From NCBI GenBank assembly GCA_903896015.1, contig CAITWF010000078.1:1-64000 (forward strand): DNA of 64,000 nt, given 5' to 3'. A program made the translations under genes and the position numbers. Numbering within the stretch: the first letter of the stretch is position 1; each line of letters opens with the position of its first letter. Of this stretch, positions 37,116 to 54,081 are shown piece after piece. The notes beneath the pieces are model-generated. The model ran no database searches and had not been told where the DNA came from. It worked only from the letters and a program-made list of their open reading frames with translations. The stretch comes from an uncultured Opitutia bacterium. Its GTDB lineage: Bacteria > Verrucomicrobiota > Verrucomicrobiia > Opitutales > Opitutaceae.

Positions 37116-38984
37116 ATGCGGTTGCTGAACGAATGGATGGCGCGGCTCGACGAGGCTTACCGCGGGCAGCCGTATTTCGTCGGCCAGAAGGCGCGGCTGC
37201 TGGTGGCGTTTAGCGTGCTGATGCTGCTGTTCGTGCCGATTAACCTCGCGAAACTGCTCTTGGTCCAGCCGCCGCATTTGCCGGAACGCATGCTCTTCTC
37301 GCTGTTTATCGCAGGCACGATGATGTTTGCGCTGCGCAAAAATTTTCGCGGCCGCTGCGAGGCGGCCGGCAACGGCGCGGCGCTCGCGCTGGCCGGCGTG
37401 ATGCACGGCAGTGTGCTGCTGCTGCCCGTCTACGAGGAGCCTCTCAGTGCGGCGATCCAGCTTGTGGTGATCGATTTTGTGCTGCTGCTGTTCGCGCTCG
37501 TGTTTGCGTCGTGGCGCGTCGCGGTCGCTGTGCTCGTGATGATGATGGCGGGTAACACGGCGCTATATTTCAAGGCGCTGCACCGCACCGATGCGCCGGG
37601 CTCGATCGCGTTTGCGGCCGATACGCTGCTGCGCGACGGCTCGATCGCGGTGAGCCTCGTATTTGCGCTCGGGCTGACGCTGGCGCGGCTGATCGAGGCG
37701 GCGCACCGGCGCAGCGAGGAGGCGTTGCGGCAGACGAGGCTCGTGAACGAGAATCTCGAGCGCCTCGTCTCCGAGCGCACCTGCGAGCTGGAGGCCGCGA
37801 CGCGCCAAGCGAACGCCGCCTCGCGCGCGAAGAGCGAATTTCTCGCCAACATGAGCCACGAAATCCGCACGCCGCTCAACGGCATCATTGGCTCGGCCGA
37901 TCTGTTGCAGCACCGCGCGGATGTGCCGGAGGCCGCGCGCGAGCACGTGCGGCTGATCGCGGAGTCGGGCGATCTGCTGGTGCGGCTGCTTGGCGACATC
38001 CTGGATTTTTCCAAAATCGAGGCGGGCCAGCTCGCGCTTGAGCAGCAGCCGTTCGAGCTGGCGGCAGTCGTGGCCGACACCGCCGCGATCGTCGCGGCGA
38101 AGGCGACGGCGAGCGGCGTGCAATTCGAGAGCCGCGTCGCAGCGGAGCTGCCGCGGCAGGTCGAAGGCGACCGTTACCGGCTTCGGCAGGTGCTGCTCAA
38201 CCTCATCTCGAACGCGATCAAGTTTACGCCCGCCGGTGGCCGCGTGTGGTTGACCGTGGAGGCCTCGGCGCCGGGAGCGAGCCCCGCGCCGGTGCGCTTT
38301 GCCGTGCGCGACACCGGCATCGGCATCGATCCGGCGGTTCGAGCACAGATCTTCGAGCGCTTCACGCAGGCCGACTCCTCGACGACGCGGCGCTACGGCG
38401 GCTCCGGCCTCGGCCTCGCGATCAGCGCGCAACTCGTGCGGCTGATGGGCGGCAAGCTCGAGGTCGAGAGTGCGCCCGGCCAGGGCTCGGTGTTTTTTTT
38501 CTCGTTGCCGCTGCGCTCTGCCGCGGTCGCGAAGGAGCCGAAAAGCGGGCCCGCGCGCGGTGCGACTCAACTCGGGTGGCGCGTGCTCGTTGCCGAGGAC
38601 AACGAGGTCAACCGCAAGATCCTCGCGGTCCAGCTGCGTCAGCTCGGCTGCCCGGCCACGATGGTGGAAGATGGCGCGCAGGCGCTGGCGTCGTTGCAGC
38701 AGGCGCCGTTGCCCGACGTGATTCTGATGGACTGCCACATGCCGGTGCTCGATGGCTGGGAAACCGCGCGCCGCCTGCGCGCGTGGTCGGCGGACGCCGA
38801 TCCGGTGCGGCGTCAGGCCGCCGCCCTCCCGATCATCGCGCTCACGGCCGCGGCGTTGCCGGAGGAGCGGGCGCGTTGTCTCGCGGCGGGGATGAACGCA
38901 TTTCTCGCGAAGCCGCTCAAGGTGGCCGAGCTGGAGCACGCCTTGCGCGCGGCGATCCCGGTGGCGGATCACCTGAAGAACTAG
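37116..38984 (+). CDS. Hybrid sensor histidine kinase/response regulator
   Basis: 622 residues. About six membrane helices occupy residues 28-195 with little exposed sequence, so it probably senses a membrane state or small molecule. A short coiled coil (196-238) leads to the HisKA domain, H248 in [11 protein letters not shown]. The ATPase domain has [17 protein letters not shown] and [12 protein letters not shown]-terminal receiver carries D539 ([10 protein letters not shown]) and AKPL. Phosphate would pass from H248 to D539 and on to a separate HPt protein such as that at 48425. It stands alone between genes of opposite strand. Confidence 0.93.
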
Positions 38985-43918: not shown

Positions 43919-44087
43919 GGGAGCGGTGGGAGGGCGGAGACGGTAGCGGATCGGACGGTGCGGAGGCAGACGTAGCGGGCGGAGTTTGCGACCGGCACAG
44001 TTGGAGCAAAGATGAAAGTGTGACCATGACAATTGGGGATGGGCCCATGCGTTGACAGCAGGGCGGGATTGCGGCGGGCTGCGCGCG

Positions 44088-44663
44088 ATGGATGAGGAGC
44101 AGCAGGAATTTTCCCGATTGGTCGGCGCGGTGCTCGTGCGGTTCTACGCGCAGAACGCCCGAACTCCACCGCCCGGCCCCGAGTTGGCCGCATTCGGCGC
44201 CCGTCTGGGGGCAATCGTCGCGGAGCGCGGGTTGCCACGGCCGCTGGCGGCGCACGAGCGCGGCGCGCCGGGCGAAATGAGTGACGAGAAGTGTGCGCCG
44301 CTGGTCGCGGCAGCTCTGGGCGGTGCGACGGACGAATTACTGGCGACGGCGGCGAAGCAACTCGTGAAGGCGTGTTTTTATCCCGAGTTCAAGACCTGTC
44401 GCGATTCGTGGTGCGAGGTGGCGGCGGACGGCGCGTGCCGGCGGCAGGAGCTGGCGCGGGTGTGCGGGCGGGTGAGCGGCACGCATTGCGTGGATTGTCC
44501 GCATTGGGTCGCGCTGACGCCGGCGCAGAATGAAAAGATGCTGGCGAAGCGCTGGCACGCGCGGGGGGCTGAGCTCGTGGAAAATCGCGGCGTGTTTTTG
44601 CCGGAGGATTTTCGCGCGCTGCGCCGGTGGCTGCATGCGCGGGCGCGCGCGCCGCGAAAATAA
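44088..44663 (+). CDS. Cysteine-rich protein of unknown function
   Basis: 191 residues from ATG 44088. Eight cysteines cluster in the centre (69, 96, 104, 109, 117, 126, 134, 137), with GTHCVDCPHW giving a C-x2-C plus His. This suggests a zinc or Fe-S site. The flanking regions are helical and soluble. No domain name can be given. It is divergent from the MocR gene and converges with the second V4R gene. Confidence 0.7.
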   Translation: MDEEQQEFSRLVGAVLVRFYAQNARTPPPGPELAAFGARLGAIVAERGLPRPLAAHERGAPGEMSDEKCAPLVAAALGGATDELLATAAKQLVKACFYPEFKTCRDSWCEVAADGACRRQELARVCGRVSGTHCVDCPHWVALTPAQNEKMLAKRWHARGAELVENRGVFLPEDFRALRRWLHARARAPRK

Positions 44664-44682: not shown

Positions 44683-45327
44683 TCAGGCTTTCAACCGCGC
44701 GACGATTTCACCGGCGGCCTTGAGCCCGAGCAGCGGTCGGATCGGATCGAGACGCTCGGCGGACGTGATGACGAAGGTGCAGTGCGGCGCTCCGAGGCGG
44801 GCGCAGCCAATCTCGATGCAGCCGAGGGCCTGGCCGCTGACGGCTTCGAGGAAGCCTTGGAGAAATCCCGCTGGCAACGCATCGGCAAACTCGGTGCCGG
44901 ATTCGAGCGCCGCAACGAAGGCGCTGTGTTGCAGGCGGGCGATGACGAGGCCGTGCTCGGCGGCGTCGGTGAGATCGGCGGTGAGCAGTCCCCAGCCCTG
45001 AGCCTTGAATTGCCGCGCGGCGAGCGCGAGGCACGCCTCCAGCGGCTGATCGGTGAGCACGGGCTGACCGAGACGCGTGAGTTCGAGATCGAGCGTCGTG
45101 GCAAAGGCGTGACCGGCCGTGATGCCACCGGCGTGTTGCATGGCCGGCCAGGCGCCGGGTTTGTCGGCGTGAAACACAGCGTGCACGGCTTGCAAGAATG
45201 TCGAGGCGGCAAACACGATCCGCGAGCCATCGGCGACGAGGGCGACGCCGGCCGCCGGGTCGAGGCGGGGACCGCGACTTTCGAAGAGGCGGCCGAAGGG
45301 GGAGGCGGATTCGCCGGGCGGTTTCAT
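44683..45327 (-). CDS. V4R-domain protein (second of tandem pair)
   Basis: 214 residues from ATG 45327, overlapping the first V4R gene by 4 bp. The C-terminal V4R (4-vinyl reductase-type) domain (about 145-187) carries C175-x7-C183 in IGCARLGAPHCTF. The N-terminal half aligns with its neighbour: GWGLLTADLTDAAEHG here and GWGACVFDLSEHGK there, both followed by a similar LQHSA / LRHSA. V4R domains are ligand- or metal-binding modules in signalling and BchJ proteins. The Cys/His near 148 of the neighbour is missing here, so ligand properties may differ. Confidence 0.75.
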   Translation of the reverse strand: MKPPGESASPFGRLFESRGPRLDPAAGVALVADGSRIVFAASTFLQAVHAVFHADKPGAWPAMQHAGGITAGHAFATTLDLELTRLGQPVLTDQPLEACLALAARQFKAQGWGLLTADLTDAAEHGLVIARLQHSAFVAALESGTEFADALPAGFLQGFLEAVSGQALGCIEIGCARLGAPHCTFVITSAERLDPIRPLLGLKAAGEIVARLKA

Positions 45328-46025
45328 TTCTTCCAGGGGATTTTCGCGGCCTTGGCCGAAGCAGCCGGAGCGGCGGGCTTCGGATCGAGGCTGAGGCGGC
45401 GAATGGCCTCGTGCGCAAGGCCGGACTGACGGGCGGTTTCCGCGCGATCGATCAGGGGGCCGGGGCCGACGATGAAGCGACAGCAGGCGTGGCCCAGGGC
45501 GGTGCACTCGGTCTCGACGGCGTGGCTTTCCGTGCGATCGTAGAAGCTGAGCGCGCCAGCGAAGAGGCCGGCGTAGAGGTGGCACACGGGCGCGTTGACC
45601 TTGGCGTCACGGGAGGCGGCAGCGGCGGCGCTGTGGCGAAGTTCGACGAAGAGGAGACGTTTGCCGTGCTCGGAGAGATCAAAGACGCATGCGCCCCAGC
45701 CGGCGGCGGCGAACGGCGCGGCCCAGCGTTCGAGCACGAAGGGCGCGTCGAGATGCCAGAGGTCGCGCTGGTCTGAGGGGTCGAGCTCGGCGCGGAGGCG
45801 GGTGTGAAGGTGGAGCATTTCCTGCAGGCCCCATTCGTAGCCGGCGCGATAGAGGACTGGACGGAGGGTCTCCGGGCTTTCTCCGGGGAGGCCGGCGTGC
45901 AACGCCTGCATTACGGCTGCGGGCAGCGCGACCACACGGCGATCGTCCGGCGTGTGCAAAGCGCCTTCCGCGGGGCGGGAACGGATGAAATCCTGCGTAG
46001 TGGCACTGGAGGCGCGATCAGACAT
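45324..46025 (-). CDS. V4R-domain protein (first of tandem pair)
   Basis: 233 residues. The V4R domain (about 145-187) is clear: VCHLYAGLFAGALSF with C148/H149, then ETECTALGHACCRF with C174 and C181/C182. The Cys-x7-Cys spacing equals that of the downstream gene. The N-terminal 140 residues are soluble alpha/beta. It and its neighbour are diverged full-length paralogs joined by an ATGA overlap. They lie 147 bp downstream of the pseudo-NtrC gene on the same strand, suggesting one unit. Confidence 0.83.
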   Translation of the reverse strand: MSDRASSATTQDFIRSRPAEGALHTPDDRRVVALPAAVMQALHAGLPGESPETLRPVLYRAGYEWGLQEMLHLHTRLRAELDPSDQRDLWHLDAPFVLERWAAPFAAAGWGACVFDLSEHGKRLLFVELRHSAAAAASRDAKVNAPVCHLYAGLFAGALSFYDRTESHAVETECTALGHACCRFIVGPGPLIDRAETARQSGLAHEAIRRLSLDPKPAAPAASAKAAKIPWKK

Positions 46026-46172
46026 TCAGCGGCGGCAAGGCGGAGGGAGGAGATGTGGTGGGCGTCGAGCGGATGCGATCCGCGCGAACTCATCTAGCGT
46101 GTCAATCGGCCTGCACAGACACAAGGCGATTACGCAAACTTACGGCAATTCCCTCACCGGCGGGAGACGTGC

Positions 46173-47600
46173 TCAGGAGGCGAGCGCGGCACCGACGTGC
46201 GCGAGCGAACTCGCGAGGCGCTGGCCGAAATCATAGGCCTGCGTGGCGGGGCGAAACACGCTGCGTGCGCTGAGCGCGGGAGTCGTTGTCGCGGGGAGCT
46301 CGATGATTTTGACCGGCTGGGCCGGGGCGACGGGCAGAACGGTTACGGCCTTCGCGGGGGCGGGCGCCTTTTCGCTCGCGCGGTGATGGGCGGCGAGCGT
46401 CTCGACGTCGATATTCTGATCGCGCGAGGCGCGGGCGGCGGCGAGGAGCAAGCGGGAGAGTTGCGCGTAGTTGCCGGGCCAATCTTGGTTTTCGAGCCAG
46501 CGGGCAGCTTCGGCAGTGAGCGTGAAGGCCGCGGGAGCGTTGAGGGCGATGCGGTGTTCGGCGAGCAGTTGGGCGGCGTTGGCGAGGATGTCGGCGCGCA
46601 GTTCGCGGAGGGCCGGGACGGTGAGCGAGAGCGAACTAATTTTATAGTAGAGCGTCTCGTCGAAGCGGCCGGAGTCGGCGAGTTCGGAAAGATTGGCGGC
46701 AGCGGCGAGGATGACGCGGAAGCGGCGGGCGAAGGGTTGAAACACGTCGCGACTGGTGACGAGGTGCTCGAGGGTTTTCTGTTGCGCGGGGGTGAAGGTC
46801 TCCACGCCGGTAATGATGAGGGTGCCTGCGTCAGTCGAGAGCAGCGTGGGCGCGAGCGCCTCGATGAGGTGGCGGGTGTCGAACTGCGCGGCATCGCACA
46901 CCATGATCGGACCTTCGCGGAACATGGAGGTCTCGGCGAGATCGCGGGCGAGCGGCTCAAAGGGACTGCCGGTTTCGCCTTGGAGGAGGAGCACAGCGCG
47001 GAAGTCGCGGACTTTCCAGAGGCGGTGGCTGAAATCGCGAAATGCGGCCGAGGAGCCGAGAAAATAGCGGGGCTTGTAGGCGAGGTTGTCGAGCGCGGGC
47101 TCGAGCGCGGCAGCCACCGGGGCCGGGGCGAGCGGCGAACTGGAGCTGCCGCGGCGCGCGGCGGGCAGCGGAGAATTGGAGCCGCGACCGGCCGCACCGT
47201 CCTTGCCGGAAGGGCGGTTTAGTGTCTCGTTGATCTTTTCGAGAAGAATTTTCGGATTAGCCGGTTTGTTGAAGATGCCGGAGACGCCCTGGCTGCTGAG
47301 CTGGATGGCGAGTTCGAGGGTGAGAGAGCCGGAGACGAAGATGACCGCGATTTGGGGGAGAAGCTTGCGCAGCTCGTGCATGAAGGCCTGACCGTTCATG
47401 CCGGGCAGTTCGTAGTCGATTACGGCGAGGTCGTAGTTTCGGCCTTTGGCGGCCGAGAGCGCGGACTCCGGATGCTCATGCGCGGAGATTGCGTAGCCGG
47501 CTTGGCGCAGCAGCAGGCTCTGCATCTCGCGGAAGACCGAGGAGTCTTCGACAATGAGCACATGCGCGCGCGCTGACTTGGGCTGGAGGATGTCGCTCAT
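46173..47600 (-). CDS. Receiver protein with inactive NtrC-like ATPase domain
   Basis: 475 residues from ATG 47600. The receiver (10-125) has D19, phosphoacceptor D62 (VIDYELPGMNG), SGS and NKPA. A Ser/Ala/Pro-rich linker (about 128-165) leads to an NtrC-like AAA+ remnant. Walker A is broken (LLQGETGSPFEP), Walker B is absent (GTLIITGVETFT), GAFTGA is absent, and WPGNYAQL lacks the sensor-II Arg. The C-terminus is Pro/Ala-rich with no helix-turn-helix. It cannot bind ATP or contact sigma-54 in the normal way. It is probably a phosphorylation-controlled adaptor. Confidence 0.85.
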   Translation of the reverse strand: MSDILQPKSARAHVLIVEDSSVFREMQSLLLRQAGYAISAHEHPESALSAAKGRNYDLAVIDYELPGMNGQAFMHELRKLLPQIAVIFVSGSLTLELAIQLSSQGVSGIFNKPANPKILLEKINETLNRPSGKDGAAGRGSNSPLPAARRGSSSSPLAPAPVAAALEPALDNLAYKPRYFLGSSAAFRDFSHRLWKVRDFRAVLLLQGETGSPFEPLARDLAETSMFREGPIMVCDAAQFDTRHLIEALAPTLLSTDAGTLIITGVETFTPAQQKTLEHLVTSRDVFQPFARRFRVILAAAANLSELADSGRFDETLYYKISSLSLTVPALRELRADILANAAQLLAEHRIALNAPAAFTLTAEAARWLENQDWPGNYAQLSRLLLAAARASRDQNIDVETLAAHHRASEKAPAPAKAVTVLPVAPAQPVKIIELPATTTPALSARSVFRPATQAYDFGQRLASSLAHVGAALAS

Positions 47601-47753
47601 CGGGCAGTCCCCACCCAGCTTGATTGCGCGGCCACGCGGCCGGATCGACGGGACAATGTGTGCTTGAATTCTCTCATGGGGATTGTCAGACGATTCATAG
47701 TATCCAACGCGGTCCGTCCCAGCATCCGTAATTATGCGGAGATTTGGCGGGCA

Positions 47754-48424: not shown

Positions 48425-48763
48425 TCACGCGCCGATGAAGGCGCGAAGCGGCGGAGCAATCTGATCAAAATCCGCCTGGATCGCGGCGAGATCTGCGGGC
48501 GTAAGGTCGGCGCCGGTGGGACCTTCAAGGCGTTTTTCCAGCTCGGCCATCCGTTGGGACAATCCCATCGCCCCCATCAGCCGCGCGTTGCTTTTCAAGC
48601 TATGCGCGATCCGATGGCGATTTGCGCGGTTTCCCCCGGCGAGCTCTTTCAGTGAGACGGGAAAGTCGCGCAGGAATGTTTGGGTGAGTGTCCGCACGTT
48701 GTCCTCGCCGAGGACGGAGGCGAGTTCGGCGAGCGCCTCATTGGGCGGCGGCACGTTTGACAT
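48425..48763 (-). CDS. Free-standing HPt phosphotransfer protein
   Basis: 112 residues from ATG 48763, entirely a helical-bundle HPt domain. H54 in RIAHSLKSNARLMGA is the phosphorylated histidine. The FLRDFPVSLKEL helix before it and the QRMAELEKRLE helix after it fit the family. It would carry phosphate from the receiver of a hybrid kinase (37116 or 49428) to the receivers encoded alongside. Confidence 0.9.
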   Translation of the reverse strand: MSNVPPPNEALAELASVLGEDNVRTLTQTFLRDFPVSLKELAGGNRANRHRIAHSLKSNARLMGAMGLSQRMAELEKRLEGPTGADLTPADLAAIQADFDQIAPPLRAFIGA

Positions 48764-48841
48764 GCTGTGCAAAAGCGCACGAGTCGGGGGCACTTCGCAA
48801 AACAAAAATGCCTTGAAAATTATTTCCGTCGGCCCCGACCA

Positions 48842-49321
48842 TCAGGCGTAGCGCGCGAGTGCCGGGCCCGTCAGTCGGCAGATTTGCCACTCGGACATCC
48901 GTCGTGCGCCGATCGATTCGTAGAACGCAATCGCGGGGGCATTCCAGTCGAGCACGCTCCACTCCATGCGGCCGCAGCCGCGGGTGTTGGCGAGTTGGGC
49001 GAGGTGGAGGAGCAGAGCCTTGCCGATGCCGCGGCCACGAAATTCGGGCTTCACGAACAGGTCCTCAAGGTAGAGACCGGGTTTCGCGAGAAACGTCGAG
49101 TAGTTGAAAAAATACAGAGCAAAGCCCGCCGGCGCGTCGCCGGCGAACGCCAGCACGCAGTGCGCGATGGGCACGCCATCTGCGGGAAAGAGCGTGGCGC
49201 GCAGCTGCGCCTCGTCGGCGGTGACTTCGTCGGCGAGTTTTTCGTAGTCGGCGAGCGCGCGGATGAACGCGAGGATTTGCGGCACGTCGGCGGCCGTGGC
49301 GGGACGGATGAGTGGGTGCAC
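48842..49321 (-). CDS. GNAT acetyltransferase, SSAT-like
   Basis: 159 residues from GTG 49321, chosen because the family begins just before an IRPATAADVPQIL motif. Upstream codons would overlap the divergent kinase start. The acetyl-CoA loop VKPEFRGRGIGKALLLHLA (about 90-108) and WSVLDWNAPAIAFYESIGA are typical of the spermidine/thialysine acetyltransferase branch. ATP-independent transfer of acetyl to a small amine is expected. The specific amine is unknown. Confidence 0.85.
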   Translation of the reverse strand: MHPLIRPATAADVPQILAFIRALADYEKLADEVTADEAQLRATLFPADGVPIAHCVLAFAGDAPAGFALYFFNYSTFLAKPGLYLEDLFVKPEFRGRGIGKALLLHLAQLANTRGCGRMEWSVLDWNAPAIAFYESIGARRMSEWQICRLTGPALARYA

Positions 49322-49427
49322 GGCGCGAGCGGCGCCCACCCATGCGGCAAAGTCAAGCGGCGGGTGCGCGCGGGCTTTGTCCCTCGACAAAGGGAAATGC
49401 GCTGCGTTTTGTCGCGTCGACTTCCGC

Positions 49428-52427
49428 ATGCGTCTGCCCCCTTCCGAGCTGCCCCCTTTCCGGCCTTTCTTGGCGCTTGAGAGTCACGGGGTCGGGTATG
49501 GAGTCATCGCCCTGGTGGCGGGGCTCGGCCTGGCTGTGGGCTGGGTGCTGATGCGCCGGCTCGCGCGGCGCACGGAGCAGTTGCACCGGAGCGAGGAGCG
49601 CTGGCGCACGGTCTTCGAACACGCGGGCGTCGTCATGTTCGAGGAGGATTTTACCGAAATCGTACGGGAATTTGCGGCGCTGCGCGCAGCTGGAGTGAGC
49701 GATCTGCGCGCCCACCTGGCGGCGCACCCGGCGGAGGCGGTGGGGTGGTTTCGATTGATGCGGGTCGCCGCGGCCAACCGCGCGACGTTTGATCTGCTCG
49801 GCGGCGGCGATTTGCCGGGGATGAATGCGGCGATCCGGGCGTTTGCGCCGACGGCGCCGTCGGAGGCGTTCGTCGAAAAAGCCGTCATGCTGTGGGAGCG
49901 TCGGACGACGATCACCCTGCAGACCGGAATCACGGGGCTCGACGGCGTGCGACATTTCGGGCTGATGCAGTGCGCGGTGCCGACCAACAAAGGGCGCCCG
50001 GACTTTGCGCGCGTGCTCGTCGTGTTCACCGATTTCAGCGCGCTGCGCGAAAGCGAGGAACGTTTCCGTGAACTCTTCGACAGCGCGATCGAAGGCGTCT
50101 ACGAGGCCTGCCCCAAGGGCGCATTTCGCCGCGTGAATCCGGCACTGGCCCGCCTGCTTGGCTACCCCGACCTCGGGGCATTGCTGGCGCTCACGCCGGA
50201 ACAGGTCGCCCAACTTTACGTCGCGCCGGGCCGGCGCGACGAATTTTTCGCCGCGCTCGGCGCCGGCGACCGGGTGATGGACTTCGAGTCGGAAATTCGC
50301 CGGGCCGACGGCGCGACCGTATGGATTCAGGAAAACGTCCGCGCCGTGCGCGGCCCGGAGGGCGCGCTGCAGCGTCTGCAGGGCTTCGTCTCGGATATCA
50401 CTTTGCGCAAGCAGGCGGAGGAGGCCGTGCGCGCGAGCGAAGCACGCTACCGCATGCTGTTCGAGAACTCGCCGGTCGGCATCGTCGAACTCAACTCCCT
50501 TGAAACACTCGCGCAAATCGATCGGCTCCGTGCGTCGGGCGTCACCGACCTCGCGGCGTGGATGGCGGCGGAGCCCGCCGCCGCGCAGGCGATGATCTTT
50601 CACCTCCCGATCACGGCGATGAACGCCGCCGCGTTGCGGCTGGTGGGCGCGCAGACGGTCGACGAGGCCCAGGGCGCGTTGCCCCGCATCTTCGGTCCCG
50701 AGGCGATTGCGCTGCGGCGCCACGCGCTCCTCGAATACTGGGCCGGGCGCGACGGGGTCGAAGGCGAAACGCCGCTCACCTCGCTCGACGGCGCGGTCCG
50801 CCGTGTCCACGTGCGCTGGTGGATGCCGCAGATCGCGGGCCGGCCGCTCGGCGAGCGCACGCAGCTCGCGCTGGTCGACATCACCGCCGGTCGCGCCGCC
50901 GAAACTGCGCTGGCTGCCGAACGTGCCCGCCTTGCCGTCACGCTGCAGGCGATGACCGAATCGGTCATCACGATCGATCCGGCGGGGGTCGTCCAGTTTC
51001 TCAACGAGGCCGCGGGCCGCCTTACCGGCTGGGAGCCCGCCGCCGCCGTCGGCCGCCCGATCGACGACGTTTGTCGGCTCACGGACGAAAAAAAATCCCG
51101 CCCGATCTTTGCGCCCGTCGCCTCCGCGCTCGCCGCGGCCCGGCCGATCGACTTGCCGCCGCACACCCTGCTCCACCCCCAGGCCGGCGCGCCCCGCGCG
51201 GTCGAGGGGCGTTGCGCCCCGATGCACGATCCAACGGGCCGTGGGCTCGGTGCGGTGCTTGCGCTGCGCGACGTCACGGAAAGAAACCGCTTCGAAATTG
51301 AAATGATCCGCGCCTCGAAACTTGAGTCTGTCGGCCTGTTCGCCGGCGGCATCGCGCACGATTTCAACAACCTCCTCTCGGTCATCCTCGGCAACCTCAC
51401 GCTCGCGCTGCTCGATGAAAAAACCGCCGCGGCTGGCGGCCGCTGGCTGCGGGAGGCGGAGCGTGGCACGGTGCGCGCGCGCGAACTTACGCAGCAGCTG
51501 CTCACGTTTGCCCGCGGCGGTGAGCCGGTGCGCAGCGCGATCTCGCTCGGCGAACTCGTGCGTGAGGCGGCGGAGTTTGCGCTCCACGGTGCCAATGTGC
51601 GCTGCGAATTCGATCTCGCGCCGGACGCGCAGCCGGCCGACGCCGACAAGGGTCAGATTGGCCAGGTCGTGCAAAATCTCGTGATTAACGCCACCCAGGC
51701 GATGCCCGACGGCGGCACGATTCGTCTCAGCCTTTGCAACGAACAACTCAGCGCCGGCGCCGTGCCGCCGCTCGCCGCGGGCGATTACGTGCGGCTTGTG
51801 ATCGCGGACGCCGGTTGCGGCATCGCACCGGAAAATCTCCCTCGCGTCTTCGAGCCGTTTTTCACCACGAAGGAGCACGGCACCGGCCTCGGCCTCGCGA
51901 CCGTTTATTCGATCGTTCAAAAACATCAGGGGCACATCACCGTCGATTCGGAGCCGGGCCGCGGCACCGCCTTTCGCATCTGGCTGCCGGCCGCGCGCAC
52001 CGCACCGGTGGAGCCGCCCGCGACCGCCACGCCGTTCGGGCCGCTGCGCGGCCGCGTGTTGTTCATGGACGACGAGGAGCCGATTCGCGCGATGACACGC
52101 TCGCTGCTCGAGCGGCTCGGGCTCGAGGTGGCGCTCGCGCACGATGGGGAGGAAGCGGTGCGGCAATTCGCCGCCGCACGCGCCACCGGCCAGCCGTTTG
52201 ACGTCGTGATTGTCGATCTTACCGTGCCGGGCGGGAAAGGTGGCGCCATGGCGATGACCGACATCCTCCAGATCGATCCGGCGGCGCGCGGTATCGTCTC
52301 CAGCGGCTATTCCAGCGATCCGATCATGGCGGACTTCGCGGCACACGGCTTCCGCGGCAGCGTGCCGAAGCCCTACAAGGTGGCCGATTTCGCGCGCACG
52401 CTGCGTGAGGTGCTCAAGCAACCGTGA
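49428..52427 (+). CDS. Multi-PAS hybrid sensor histidine kinase
   Basis: 999 residues from ATG 49428. One membrane helix (about 22-42) is followed by four PAS-like sensor units. Units one and three share an inserted helical motif (LRAxGVxDLxAxxAAxPAxA), indicating duplication. Units two and four are standard PAS/PAC segments. The kinase core is of the GGIAHDFNN type, with H644, NLVINATQAMP, DAGCGI and HGTGLGLATVY. A C-terminal receiver carries D930 (IVDLTVPGG). It is largely cytoplasmic, so the cue is probably internal. The next gene starts with overlapping or closely spaced codons. Confidence 0.92.
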   Translation: MRLPPSELPPFRPFLALESHGVGYGVIALVAGLGLAVGWVLMRRLARRTEQLHRSEERWRTVFEHAGVVMFEEDFTEIVREFAALRAAGVSDLRAHLAAHPAEAVGWFRLMRVAAANRATFDLLGGGDLPGMNAAIRAFAPTAPSEAFVEKAVMLWERRTTITLQTGITGLDGVRHFGLMQCAVPTNKGRPDFARVLVVFTDFSALRESEERFRELFDSAIEGVYEACPKGAFRRVNPALARLLGYPDLGALLALTPEQVAQLYVAPGRRDEFFAALGAGDRVMDFESEIRRADGATVWIQENVRAVRGPEGALQRLQGFVSDITLRKQAEEAVRASEARYRMLFENSPVGIVELNSLETLAQIDRLRASGVTDLAAWMAAEPAAAQAMIFHLPITAMNAAALRLVGAQTVDEAQGALPRIFGPEAIALRRHALLEYWAGRDGVEGETPLTSLDGAVRRVHVRWWMPQIAGRPLGERTQLALVDITAGRAAETALAAERARLAVTLQAMTESVITIDPAGVVQFLNEAAGRLTGWEPAAAVGRPIDDVCRLTDEKKSRPIFAPVASALAAARPIDLPPHTLLHPQAGAPRAVEGRCAPMHDPTGRGLGAVLALRDVTERNRFEIEMIRASKLESVGLFAGGIAHDFNNLLSVILGNLTLALLDEKTAAAGGRWLREAERGTVRARELTQQLLTFARGGEPVRSAISLGELVREAAEFALHGANVRCEFDLAPDAQPADADKGQIGQVVQNLVINATQAMPDGGTIRLSLCNEQLSAGAVPPLAAGDYVRLVIADAGCGIAPENLPRVFEPFFTTKEHGTGLGLATVYSIVQKHQGHITVDSEPGRGTAFRIWLPAARTAPVEPPATATPFGPLRGRVLFMDDEEPIRAMTRSLLERLGLEVALAHDGEEAVRQFAAARATGQPFDVVIVDLTVPGGKGGAMAMTDILQIDPAARGIVSSGYSSDPIMADFAAHGFRGSVPKPYKVADFARTLREVLKQP

Positions 52428-53004: not shown

Positions 53005-54081
53005 TCAGTGCCCGCCCTCGAGATCGCCGGGTTGAAGCAGCGCGGCGAAGGAGGCCTTCACCGCAGCCTTCATGTAAGCTTCCTTCGCCTCGATCGTGCC
53101 GTCCTTCACGCGGTTCATGAGACTGTTGTCCATCGTGATCATGCCGTCGCCGCCGCCGCTCTCGATGATCGTCTTGATGTTGGAGATCTGGCCGCTGCGA
53201 ATCGTGTTGGGCAGCGCCTCGTGCGTGAGCAAAATCTCGTGCACGGCGCAGCGGCCCTTCGGGATTTTTTTGCAAAGGAGCTGGGCGACGACGCCGGCGA
53301 GACAGCTCGAGAGCATCACGCGCACCTGATTCTGCTCTTCGGCGGGAAACGTGTTGATGATGCGGTCGACGGTTTTCGCGGCGTTGTTGGTGTGGAGTGT
53401 GCCGAATACGAGCATGCCCATCGAGGCGCAGCCGAGCGCGAGCTTGATGGTTTCCATTTCACGCATTTCACCGAGAAGGAGAATGTCGGGATCGTGACGC
53501 ATCGCGCCCTTCAGCGCGGCGGCAAACGACGCCGTGTGCTCGCCGACCTCGCGGTGGACGATGACGGATTTCTTCACCGGATGCACAAACTCGATCGGGT
53601 CCTCGATCGTGATGATGTGGCGCGCGAGGTTTGTGTTAATGTAATCGATCATCGCGGCGAGCGTGGTCGATTTCCCGGAGCCGGTCGGGCCAGTGACGAC
53701 GACGAGCCCTTGATCGAGATGGCAGAGCTTCTTCAGCGACTCGGGCAGATTTAGTGTCTCGAACGAGAGAATCTTCGCAGGAATCTGGCGGAAAACCGCG
53801 GCCTGGCCCCAGTGGTTGTAGAGGTAATTGCCACGGAAACGCGCGATGCCGGGAATCTCGTGCGCGAGATCGAGGTCCTTGCGATCAAGGAAATCGAGCC
53901 AGCGTTTCTCGGGGCAGATCTCCTTGAGGAGCGCCTCCATGGTTTTCGCGTCGAGCGGCTTGTCGCTCATCGCCTTCAACGTGCCGGAAGCGCGCGTCTT
54001 CGGCGGCAGCCCGACCGTGAGGTGCAGATCGGATCCACCCAGTTCGAGCATTTGTTTGAGGAGAGCGTCGATGGCAGCCAT
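53005..54081 (-). CDS. pilT: Type IV pilus retraction ATPase PilT
   Basis: 358 residues. The N-terminal PAS-like domain (GGSDLHLTVGLPP, about 15-27) and the secretion-ATPase core are present: Walker A GPTGSGKS (about 130-137), the Asp box IITIEDPIEFVH, Walker B ILLLGEMREMET, and the His box TLHTNNAAKTVDRI. PilT hexamers depolymerise pilin at the PilC platform, powering twitching and DNA uptake. It lies 3 bp after the longer paralog. Confidence 0.93.
   Translation of the reverse strand: MAAIDALLKQMLELGGSDLHLTVGLPPKTRASGTLKAMSDKPLDAKTMEALLKEICPEKRWLDFLDRKDLDLAHEIPGIARFRGNYLYNHWGQAAVFRQIPAKILSFETLNLPESLKKLCHLDQGLVVVTGPTGSGKSTTLAAMIDYINTNLARHIITIEDPIEFVHPVKKSVIVHREVGEHTASFAAALKGAMRHDPDILLLGEMREMETIKLALGCASMGMLVFGTLHTNNAAKTVDRIINTFPAEEQNQVRVMLSSCLAGVVAQLLCKKIPKGRCAVHEILLTHEALPNTIRSGQISNIKTIIESGGGDGMITMDNSLMNRVKDGTIEAKEAYMKAAVKASFAALLQPGDLEGGH

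What the first reader, a model, noticed from the sequence alone, without database searches (positions are those of the whole stretch)
44683..47600. Tandem V4R paralogs behind a pseudo-NtrC receiver: possible new signalling unit
Three same-strand genes encode a phospho-receiver without transcriptional output, then two full-length paralogous V4R proteins joined by an ATGA overlap. The paralogs share C-x7-C, but only the first keeps the C148/H149 pair. V4R domains are known as ligand- or metal-binding sensor modules, usually fused to regulators. Here they are separate, paired and beside a phospho-adaptor. The diverged pair suggests a heterodimer. A LuxR regulator and HPt next door would complete a phosphorelay.
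Basis: partly seen in the sequence, partly recalled or inferred. Interest (0 to 1): 0.6.

Follow-up and report, generated by a model that had tools for sequence, protein, structure and literature searches.

The report
Bilin-cluster protein pair beside phosphorelay genes
Two sister sensor-type proteins that elsewhere sit in pigment (bilin) gene clusters have, in some Opitutaceae-type bacteria, lost the pigment genes and become a compact unit with a disabled regulator protein beside a phosphate-relay pair, which makes the unknown job of this protein pair easier to test.

Summary
In detail: receiver plus degenerate NtrC-type AAA (46173-47600), V4R_A (45324-46025) and V4R_B (44683-45327), minus strand, beside HPt and a NarL-type regulator. 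The order is conserved: of 36 V4R loci in named genomes, 20 are of this type, all with HPt, NarL and the receiver gene. In 200 family genomes the 14 with a strong receiver-protein match all have V4R_A. Cassette-less 'empty sites' exist. But the V4R pair itself is not new. It descends from the paired V4R proteins of pre-PcyA/BBAG bilin clusters (PMC10151467; cyanobacterial relative slr0144-slr0149): type II clades 100/100 and 100/99. Bilin globin, bilin reductase and heme oxygenase were not found in these genomes. V4R_A keeps C-E-C-C metal-site positions in 34 of 34; V4R_B has D-E-C-C in 19 of 19 of this type, 3 of 15 of the other. A 16-bp element marks the divergent promoter. Best reading: an exapted, bilin-free V4R sensor/adaptor pair acting in trans on a phospho-receiver scaffold. 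New variant of a known kind; ligand, heterodimer and phosphotransfer untested.

The parts
46173..47600 (-). REC-psiAAA: receiver domain with intact phospho-site, degenerate sigma54-activator AAA domain (no Walker A lysine, no GAFTGA seen, no HTH match), Pro/Ala linker, conserved C-terminal tail
   Evidence: Pfam; 20-sequence alignment: E18 D19 D62 S90 K112 invariant; Walker A position reads G208-x2-G211-x2-F214; tail F449 R450 F458 R461 L462 invariant
45324..46025 (-). V4R_A: stand-alone V4R protein with C148/E171/C174/C182 metal-site positions
   Evidence: Pfam V4R 4e-11; invariant 34 of 34; AlphaFold2 mean pLDDT 88.1; best solved folds are MopR/PoxR/DmpR sensor domains
44683..45327 (-). V4R_B: diverged V4R paralogue with D149/E172/C175/C183 variant site
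   Evidence: Pfam V4R 4e-8; D, E, C, C each in 19 of 19 type II rows, all four together in 3 of 15 bilin-type rows; AlphaFold2 mean pLDDT 88.5, best solved fold MopR
47601..47753 (.). divergent promoter region between REC-psiAAA and NarL; holds the conserved element at 47723-47738
   Evidence: 20 of 20 type II regions within 1 mismatch of CATYCGTANNNNTGCG (17 exact), 8 of 8 cassette-less NarL upstream regions at 2-4 mismatches; one exact match in the own genome. The NarL start in the window is uncertain; 47754 is one ATG candidate, by comparison with relatives' start codons
47658..48419 (+). NarL/LuxR-type response regulator (true start probably further in), neighbour in all 20 type II loci
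   Evidence: Pfam Response_reg 3.9e-17 and GerE 1.7e-17; 20 of 20 loci, in L086 only a 44-residue fragment
48425..48805 (-). HPt phosphotransfer protein
   Evidence: Pfam Hpt 9.6e-8; 20 of 20 loci
44052..44663 (+). P3: Cys/His-rich protein of unknown family on the other flank of the cassette; also beside heme oxygenase in two bilin-type genomes
   Evidence: no Pfam hit; C116, H145, C146, C149 in 19 of 19 sequences, window included; next to NarL in 7 cassette-less loci; next to heme oxygenase in G177 and G178

Best explanation
The unit is an exapted pair of V4R proteins from a bilin (pre-PcyA/BBAG) gene cluster, now without bilin enzymes, that works in trans with a receiver protein. Most likely V4R_A and V4R_B form a Bet3-like dimer, probably a heterodimer, each with a structural metal site and a hydrophobic pocket; ligand or redox state of the pair sets how it binds REC-psiAAA, which is a phosphorylation-gated scaffold without ATPase or DNA-binding output; the state of this complex tunes phosphate flow through HPt to the NarL-type regulator, which is the transcriptional output and may act on the conserved element in the divergent promoter. 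Shown: gene unit, descent, no bilin genes found, intact receiver residues, degenerate AAA, metal-site residues, conserved promoter element. Inferred: metal, heterodimer, ligand, docking on REC-psiAAA, phosphotransfer, NarL as the DNA-binding partner.
For: Conserved order: 20 type II loci among 36 V4R loci; 13 of these 20 appear, by contig and coordinates, to be the same genomes as G handles, so the two surveys overlap. In 200 family genomes strong REC-psiAAA matches (E below 1e-60; 14 genomes) all have V4R_A, and V4R_B was seen in all 14 (in G153 on another contig); the other 2 of 16 V4R_A genomes have bilin-type loci. In genera g7 and g26, among the 18 members shown by name, V4R_A and strong REC-psiAAA agree in all 18 (9 with both, 9 with neither). 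Empty sites: P3 and NarL are neighbours in L118, L120, L121, L122, L127, L128, L129 (gaps of about 140 bases or less, but about 620 in L122); in L123-L126 NarL, HPt, REC-psiAAA and V4R are all missing at the site. Tree: V4R_A/V4R_B split 100/100; each type II set is one clade (100/100, 100/99) nested in bilin-type V4R of Opitutales. Metal-site positions aligned by profile search to MopR and PoxR, folds agree (Z 17.6 to MopR). BBAG, bilin reductase and heme oxygenase not found in the 14 type II genomes. A REC-psiAAA is also the last gene of one bilin-type operon, L091. Bet3 relatives form heterodimers (2j3r, 2c0j). Promoter element.
Against: No complex was modelled and no partner is known. The wider neighbourhood (MocR, EamA, PilT) is often conserved too, so proximity to NarL/HPt alone proves little; NarL and HPt occur without the cassette, so they do not need it. 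Walker-less REC-psiAAA relatives exist in 7 family genomes (8 stretches) with no V4R, P3, NarL or HPt match beside them. The L091 REC-psiAAA sits on a very long branch and its orthology is unsure. REC-psiAAA and V4R_A are 63-274 bases apart in 19 relatives, 147 in the window, so one transcript is not shown; the sigma70 pattern scan found none and terminator matches were at the chance level. L086 (G031) has a stop inside V4R_A, a frame change in REC-psiAAA and only a NarL fragment, with V4R_B open. G006 has NarL and HPt with neither P3 nor cassette. Two type II loci (L086, L099) have no P3 at the site although the contig goes on.
Confidence: 0.5

Rival explanations
1. The V4R pair keeps its ancestral job as a tetrapyrrole (heme or porphyrin) carrier or chaperone rather than as a sensor, and REC-psiAAA only tethers it.
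For: The pair descends from clusters that make and bind bilins (PMC10151467). The slr0144-slr0149 cluster is linked in print to photosystem assembly and repair (PMC10151467, section 7). V4R_A shows some fold likeness to H-NOX heme proteins, Z about 7.
Against: Heme oxygenase, bilin reductase and BBAG were not found in type II genomes, so bilin made by this route is unlikely; tight linkage to a receiver points to signalling. By the tool's own note a Z under 8 may be only a common arrangement.
Confidence: 0.2
2. V4R_A and V4R_B are two separate homodimers with separate tasks; the neighbourhood is kept for co-regulation only.
For: The two clades are old and diverged; spacing between the genes varies from -14 to 317 bases; the DmpR sensory domain is an interlocked homodimer (PMC7264223, passages); in L086 V4R_A has a stop while V4R_B is open.
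Against: Of 36 loci found with V4R_A, 34 have V4R_B and the other 2 (L102, L103) end at a contig edge; loci with V4R_B alone would not have been found by this search. Bet3 paralogues heterodimerise (PDB titles).
Confidence: 0.15
3. REC-psiAAA and the V4R pair are unrelated neighbours held by general synteny of a slowly rearranging region.
For: MocR, EamA, GNAT and PilT neighbours are often conserved too.
Against: The cassette comes and goes as a block between P3 and NarL inside genera while neighbours stay; 14 of 14 joint presence in 200 genomes; conserved element at the cassette promoter and not upstream of 8 cassette-less NarL genes.
Confidence: 0.1

Closest known systems
Pre-PcyA/BBAG bilin gene clusters with paired V4R proteins, clades A and B (Rockwell, Martin and Lagarias 2023, PMC10151467), including cyanobacterial slr0144-slr0149
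   Same: One member of each of two V4R clades; the window pair nests inside the bilin-type sequences collected here; in 9 of 20 type II loci the small gene hyp5178 is kept after V4R_B; P3 sits inside or near 4 Opitutales bilin-type clusters (L085, L089, L092, L097).
   Different: No ferredoxin, BBAG globin, Ser/Thr kinase or bilin reductase at the locus, no heme oxygenase in the genomes tested; a receiver-psiAAA gene precedes the pair; NarL and HPt adjoin; V4R_B has a full D-E-C-C site.
DmpR/MopR/PoxR phenol regulators (V4R sensor fused to NtrC-type AAA); XylR is recalled as a further member
   Same: V4R sensor fold and the zinc-ligand positions (DmpR ligands in PMC7264223, passages); an NtrC-type AAA domain is encoded beside it.
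   Different: Separate proteins; AAA without Walker A lysine and GAFTGA; a receiver domain is added; no DNA-binding domain found; two different V4R chains.
TRAPP Bet3 family (PMC2253512, first part of the text read)
   Same: Same fold class (Z about 11-12); paralogues that pair as heterodimers.
   Different: Vesicle-tethering proteins; the four-residue metal site was not looked for there.

Membership tests
V4R domain proteins (PF02830) | Pfam V4R match over the curated cut-off | tested here: met
   43.2 and 33.8 bits against 31; fold match to MopR, PoxR, MJ1460
Pre-PcyA/BBAG bilin cluster | one V4R of each of two clades, related to those of the cluster | tested here: met
   tree of 70 sequences; that A and B here equal the paper's clades A and B was not checked, its supplement was not read
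Pre-PcyA/BBAG bilin cluster | bilin-binding globin (PF00502) in cluster or genome | tested here: not met
   own genome and G025 shown with 0; over cut-off only in G177 and G178 of 200 family genomes, both of the other locus type; one weak match in G081. Most no-match rows are not listed by name
Pre-PcyA/BBAG bilin cluster | ferredoxin-dependent bilin reductase (PF05996) | tested here: not met
   own genome and G025 shown with 0; over cut-off only in G177 and G178 of 200; weak matches in G002 and G051
Pre-PcyA/BBAG bilin cluster | heme oxygenase (PF01126) | tested here: not met
   0 of 14 type II genomes, 2 of 2 bilin-type genomes, 0 of 4 cassette-less genomes. Unrelated heme oxygenase families were not searched
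DmpR/MopR-type V4R sensors | four zinc ligands C-E-C-C | tested here: met
   V4R_A 34 of 34, aligned to MopR and PoxR in the alignments shown (the DmpR alignment was not printed). V4R_B has D in place of the first C. Metal itself not testable
DmpR/MopR-type V4R sensors | V4R fused to active AAA and DNA-binding domain | tested here: not met
   separate genes, AAA degenerate, no HTH match
NtrC-type enhancer-binding proteins | Walker A lysine, GAFTGA loop, HTH | tested here: not met
   Phe in place of the Walker A lysine in 20 of 20; no HTH match; GAFTGA absent by reading the alignment
Receiver (REC) domain proteins | acidic pair, phospho-Asp, Ser/Thr, Lys | tested here: met
   E18 D19, D62, S90, K112 invariant in 20 of 20
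His-Asp phosphorelay | phosphate transfer between kinase, HPt and receivers | not testable with these tools
   HPt, NarL and one hybrid kinase (49263-52427) by Pfam; a second hybrid-kinase-like frame at 37116-38984 by reading only. Transfer needs biochemistry

The most novel reading that the evidence does not exclude
A bilin-cluster V4R pair has been turned into a stand-alone, metal-stabilised heterodimeric sensor of a tetrapyrrole or other hydrophobic molecule that speaks in trans to a phospho-receiver scaffold, that is, a DmpR-type sensor-to-AAA contact split over three proteins and gated by phosphorylation. By extension the V4R pair of BBAG clusters and of the cyanobacterial slr0144-slr0149 cluster would be the signalling core of those clusters, with a Ser/Thr kinase beside many bilin-type pairs and a His-Asp relay here.
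Probability: 0.3. Interest if true: 0.75.

Novelty: new variant of a known kind. Interest (0 to 1): 0.55.

Why it matters
In the papers seen here, what the paired V4R proteins of bilin and photosystem-assembly clusters do is not settled. This locus is a natural dissection: the pair survives without the bilin enzymes, globin, ferredoxin and Ser/Thr kinase of its relatives, but with a receiver protein. That favours a signalling role and gives a small, bilin-free system in which partner, ligand and metal can be measured. It also shows a receiver protein with a degenerate AAA domain conserved as a partner of V4R proteins, in contrast to the fused V4R-AAA regulators of phenol degradation.

Tried and rejected
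Single-sequence PDB searches with P0001 and P0002 gave nothing useful; the profile search did. BchJ together with V4R: no paper held. V4R with Opitut: 3 papers, listing and abstracts only, none on this locus by title or abstract. The BBAG search matched 69,259 papers because the short term is loose; of the 12 listed, the 2023 paper and one with a single mention are relevant. So 'not found in print' rests only in an open-access library, and supplements were not read.

Idea that the V4R genes are a recent tandem duplication: rejected, the A/B split has 100/100 support and separates both locus types (root drawn at the midpoint). Idea that V4R_B has simply lost its metal site: rejected for this locus type (19 of 19 with D, E, C, C). 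Idea that the 4-base ATGA overlap matters: rejected, not conserved. Idea that the PilT neighbourhood ties the unit to pili: not supported, PilT neighbours also occur in cassette-less loci (L125, L126, L127). Orthology of the L091 receiver protein: unresolved, long branch. The conserved element was defined from the same 20 promoter regions in which it was counted, so that count is partly circular; controls are the 8 cassette-less regions (2-4 mismatches, nearest 2 in L119 and L129), mononucleotide shuffles (2 of 1000 within 1 mismatch) and the genome scan, where the pattern read backwards gave 5 matches in 18 genomes against 19 for the pattern. The V4R_B model was not re-aligned with VIA-align.

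Of the 15 comparison stretches, 7 show P3 beside NarL; the other 8 are L119 (NarL, HPt, no P3), L123-L126 (P3 without NarL or HPt), L130 (P3 contig of the type II genome G031), L131 (P3 without NarL) and L132 (P3 contig of the bilin-type genome G178). Only matches to the chosen query proteins were looked for in the gaps.

Rows dropped: A4 omits L086 (stop inside), L103 and L109; A5 omits L088 (cut by the contig end), and L102 and L103 (no V4R_B); the V4R tree kept proteins over 180 aa, so L086 V4R_A and L088 V4R_B are out (70 rows with the window pair); A3 omits L086.
Full report
CHECK. Pfam gives a receiver domain, a sigma54-activator-type AAA domain and lid for the first protein, with no helix-turn-helix match, and one V4R domain for each of the other two. 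The V4R proteins are paralogues (30% over 175 columns, E=1e-10) and the only V4R matches in the genome. HPt and a NarL-type regulator are adjacent.

CONSERVATION. A scan of named genomes with a V4R_A alignment gave 36 loci (records of the window's own genome may be left out by the tool). Gene orders, judged by matches to chosen query proteins, fall into two types. Type II, the window type, 20 of 36, all with Verrucomicrobia or Opitutae-type record titles: HPt, NarL divergent and REC-psiAAA in 20 of 20, then V4R_A, V4R_B (19 of 20; L102 ends first), hyp5178 in 9 of 20 and P3 on the other strand in 14 of 20 (L081, L088, L093 and L102 end at a contig edge; L086 and L099 lack it). L086 is damaged: a stop inside V4R_A, a frame change in REC-psiAAA and only a NarL fragment. 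Thirteen of the 20 appear, by contig and coordinates, to be the same genomes as G handles. Type I, 16 of 36, in Opitutales/Opitutaceae, Methylococcaceae, Lysobacterales, Wenzhouxiangella, Thiomargarita, Comamonadaceae and Sericytochromatia records: ferredoxin (15 of 16), V4R_A, phycobilisome-type globin (15 of 16; L103 ends first), V4R_B (15 of 16), Ser/Thr kinase (14 of 16) and bilin reductase (10 of 16). Two of these (L089, L095) are the genomes G177 and G178, whose clusters were also read gene by gene.

WHAT TYPE I IS. It matches the pre-PcyA/BBAG clusters of PMC10151467 (abstract, section 7 and found passages read): Fe-S protein, BBAG globin, two V4R proteins of two clades, bilin reductase, often heme oxygenase, with a cyanobacterial relative at slr0144-slr0149.

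DESCENT. In a maximum-likelihood tree of 70 V4R proteins the A and B sets split at 100/100. Type II A is one clade (100/100) and type II B one clade (100/99), each inside type I; the sister of type II B is the Opitutales type I locus L085 (98/99), whose order V4R_B-hyp5178-P3 also recalls type II. The placement of type II A next to Opitutales type I is weaker (81/89). L111_B has a very long branch. So the window pair is a derived remnant of a bilin-type cluster, most simply by one event.

LOSS OF BILIN GENES. In the 200-genome family sample, BBAG and bilin reductase exceed the cut-off only in G177 and G178, the two type I genomes; weak matches below cut-off were seen in G081, and in G002 and G051. 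Heme oxygenase (PF01126): 0 of 14 type II, 2 of 2 type I, 0 of 4 cassette-less. In both type I genomes heme oxygenase lies next to P3.

CO-OCCURRENCE AND EMPTY SITES. V4R_A matches 16 of 200 family genomes at E<=1e-5. P0007 matches 27 of 200 at E<=1e-20, 14 of them below 1e-60; these 14 are all among the 16, and the other two V4R_A genomes are type I. The 13 weaker genomes hold more distant receiver-AAA proteins, some with and some without the Walker lysine, and have no type II V4R. In 7 of 15 comparison stretches P3 and NarL are neighbours with no match between them; HPt is present in 6 of these 7, and the gap in L122 is about 620 bases. Four genomes of genus g26 lack NarL, HPt, REC-psiAAA and V4R at the site (L123-L126; L123 is a short contig), and none of the four is in the NarL list at E<=1e-45. 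Close NarL relatives are common without the cassette (99 of 200 at E<=1e-45), as is P3 (55 of 200). In a 387-genome phylum sample only 3 genomes had V4R matches to the A4 profile at E<=1e-8, the own one, one of the family and one of the order.

REC-psiAAA. Twenty type II sequences keep E18, D19, D62, S90 and K112. Phe replaces the Walker A lysine in all 20, and the Walker B region is altered. A variable Pro/Ala linker is followed by a conserved tail with F449, R450, F458, R461 and L462 invariant. A REC-psiAAA is the last gene of the type I operon in L091 (E=7e-39), and very degenerate ones follow the type I clusters in L089 and L095. This suggests, but does not show, that the partnership is older than type II, because the L091 branch is too long to place. 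The nearest stand-alone relatives, in 7 genomes of g41 and g44, also lack the Walker lysine and have no V4R, P3, NarL or HPt match in the 8 stretches fetched.

METAL SITE. V4R_A: C148, E171, C174, C182 in 34 of 34 (14 type I, 20 type II). A profile of these 34 hits chains of MopR (1.4e-5), PoxR (3.6e-4) and DmpR/CapR (4.6e-4); in the printed alignments, of MopR and PoxR, the four residues face C, E, C, C. DmpR zinc ligands are given in PMC7264223 (passages) as Cys151, Glu172, Cys177 and Cys185; the cysteine spacing fits V4R_A, while the glutamate number there differs by two from the position aligned here. MopR and PoxR ligand numbers are recalled. V4R_B: D149, E172, C175, C183 in 19 of 19 type II but all four together in only 3 of 15 type I (L085, L092, L104; counted from the rows). 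So the second site is kept or rebuilt mainly in type II. Predicted folds are confident (mean pLDDT 88.1 and 88.5); best solved neighbours are MopR, PoxR and DmpR, Z 17.6, rmsd 3.6 over 186 residues for V4R_A, with the Bet3 family at Z about 11-12.

PROMOTER. The divergent REC-psiAAA/NarL region carries a conserved 16-bp element: within 1 mismatch in 20 of 20 type II regions (17 exact; 19 relatives and the window), best 2-4 mismatches in 8 of 8 NarL upstream regions without the cassette, 2 of 1000 shuffles within 1 mismatch. An exact scan of 18 genomes finds it at this locus in 12 of 13 type II genomes (G128 has it with one mismatch, as L082), once only in the own genome, and never at NarL in the 5 others. 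The protein that binds it is unknown.

MECHANISM. See Best explanation. The pair most likely is a metal-containing sensor or adaptor dimer that acts on REC-psiAAA in trans, with NarL as output. The steps from fold to function are inference.

NOVELTY. V4R pairs are known; their bilin-free, receiver-coupled form was not found in the papers searched. New variant of a known kind.

Noticed in passing
L089:10601 frame (also L085, L091, L092, L095, L108, L110, L113): The Pro-rich protein between V4R_A and the BBAG globin in type I clusters carries 2-6 copies of a short FFxxLPW-like motif (8 of 14 type I loci scanned have at least 2): a possible docking scaffold, no Pfam match in the one scanned.
   Followed up: partly
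window 44052-44663; G177 and G178 heme oxygenase neighbourhoods: P3 is a Cys/His-rich protein without Pfam match, in 55 of 200 family genomes, next to heme oxygenase in both type I family genomes and next to NarL in 7 cassette-less stretches; C116, H145, C146, C149 in 19 of 19 sequences.
   Followed up: partly
L054-L060, L067: Stand-alone receiver proteins with Walker-less AAA domains in genera g41 and g44, a further family of NtrC-type receivers with dead AAA domains and no V4R neighbours.
   Followed up: partly
L079:11592-12191 and 8 more type II loci: hyp5178, a small unnamed gene of bilin-type clusters, survives after V4R_B in 9 of 20 type II loci; there is no room for it in the window.
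   Followed up: no
L089:2921-8728: A 1936-aa protein with no Pfam match precedes the ferredoxin and V4R_A genes in a type I cluster of Opitutales; similar long frames occur in other type I loci.
   Followed up: no
window 53005-54081: PilT-type ATPase with a second PilT-like gene beside it in many relatives, near the site with and without the V4R cassette.
   Followed up: partly
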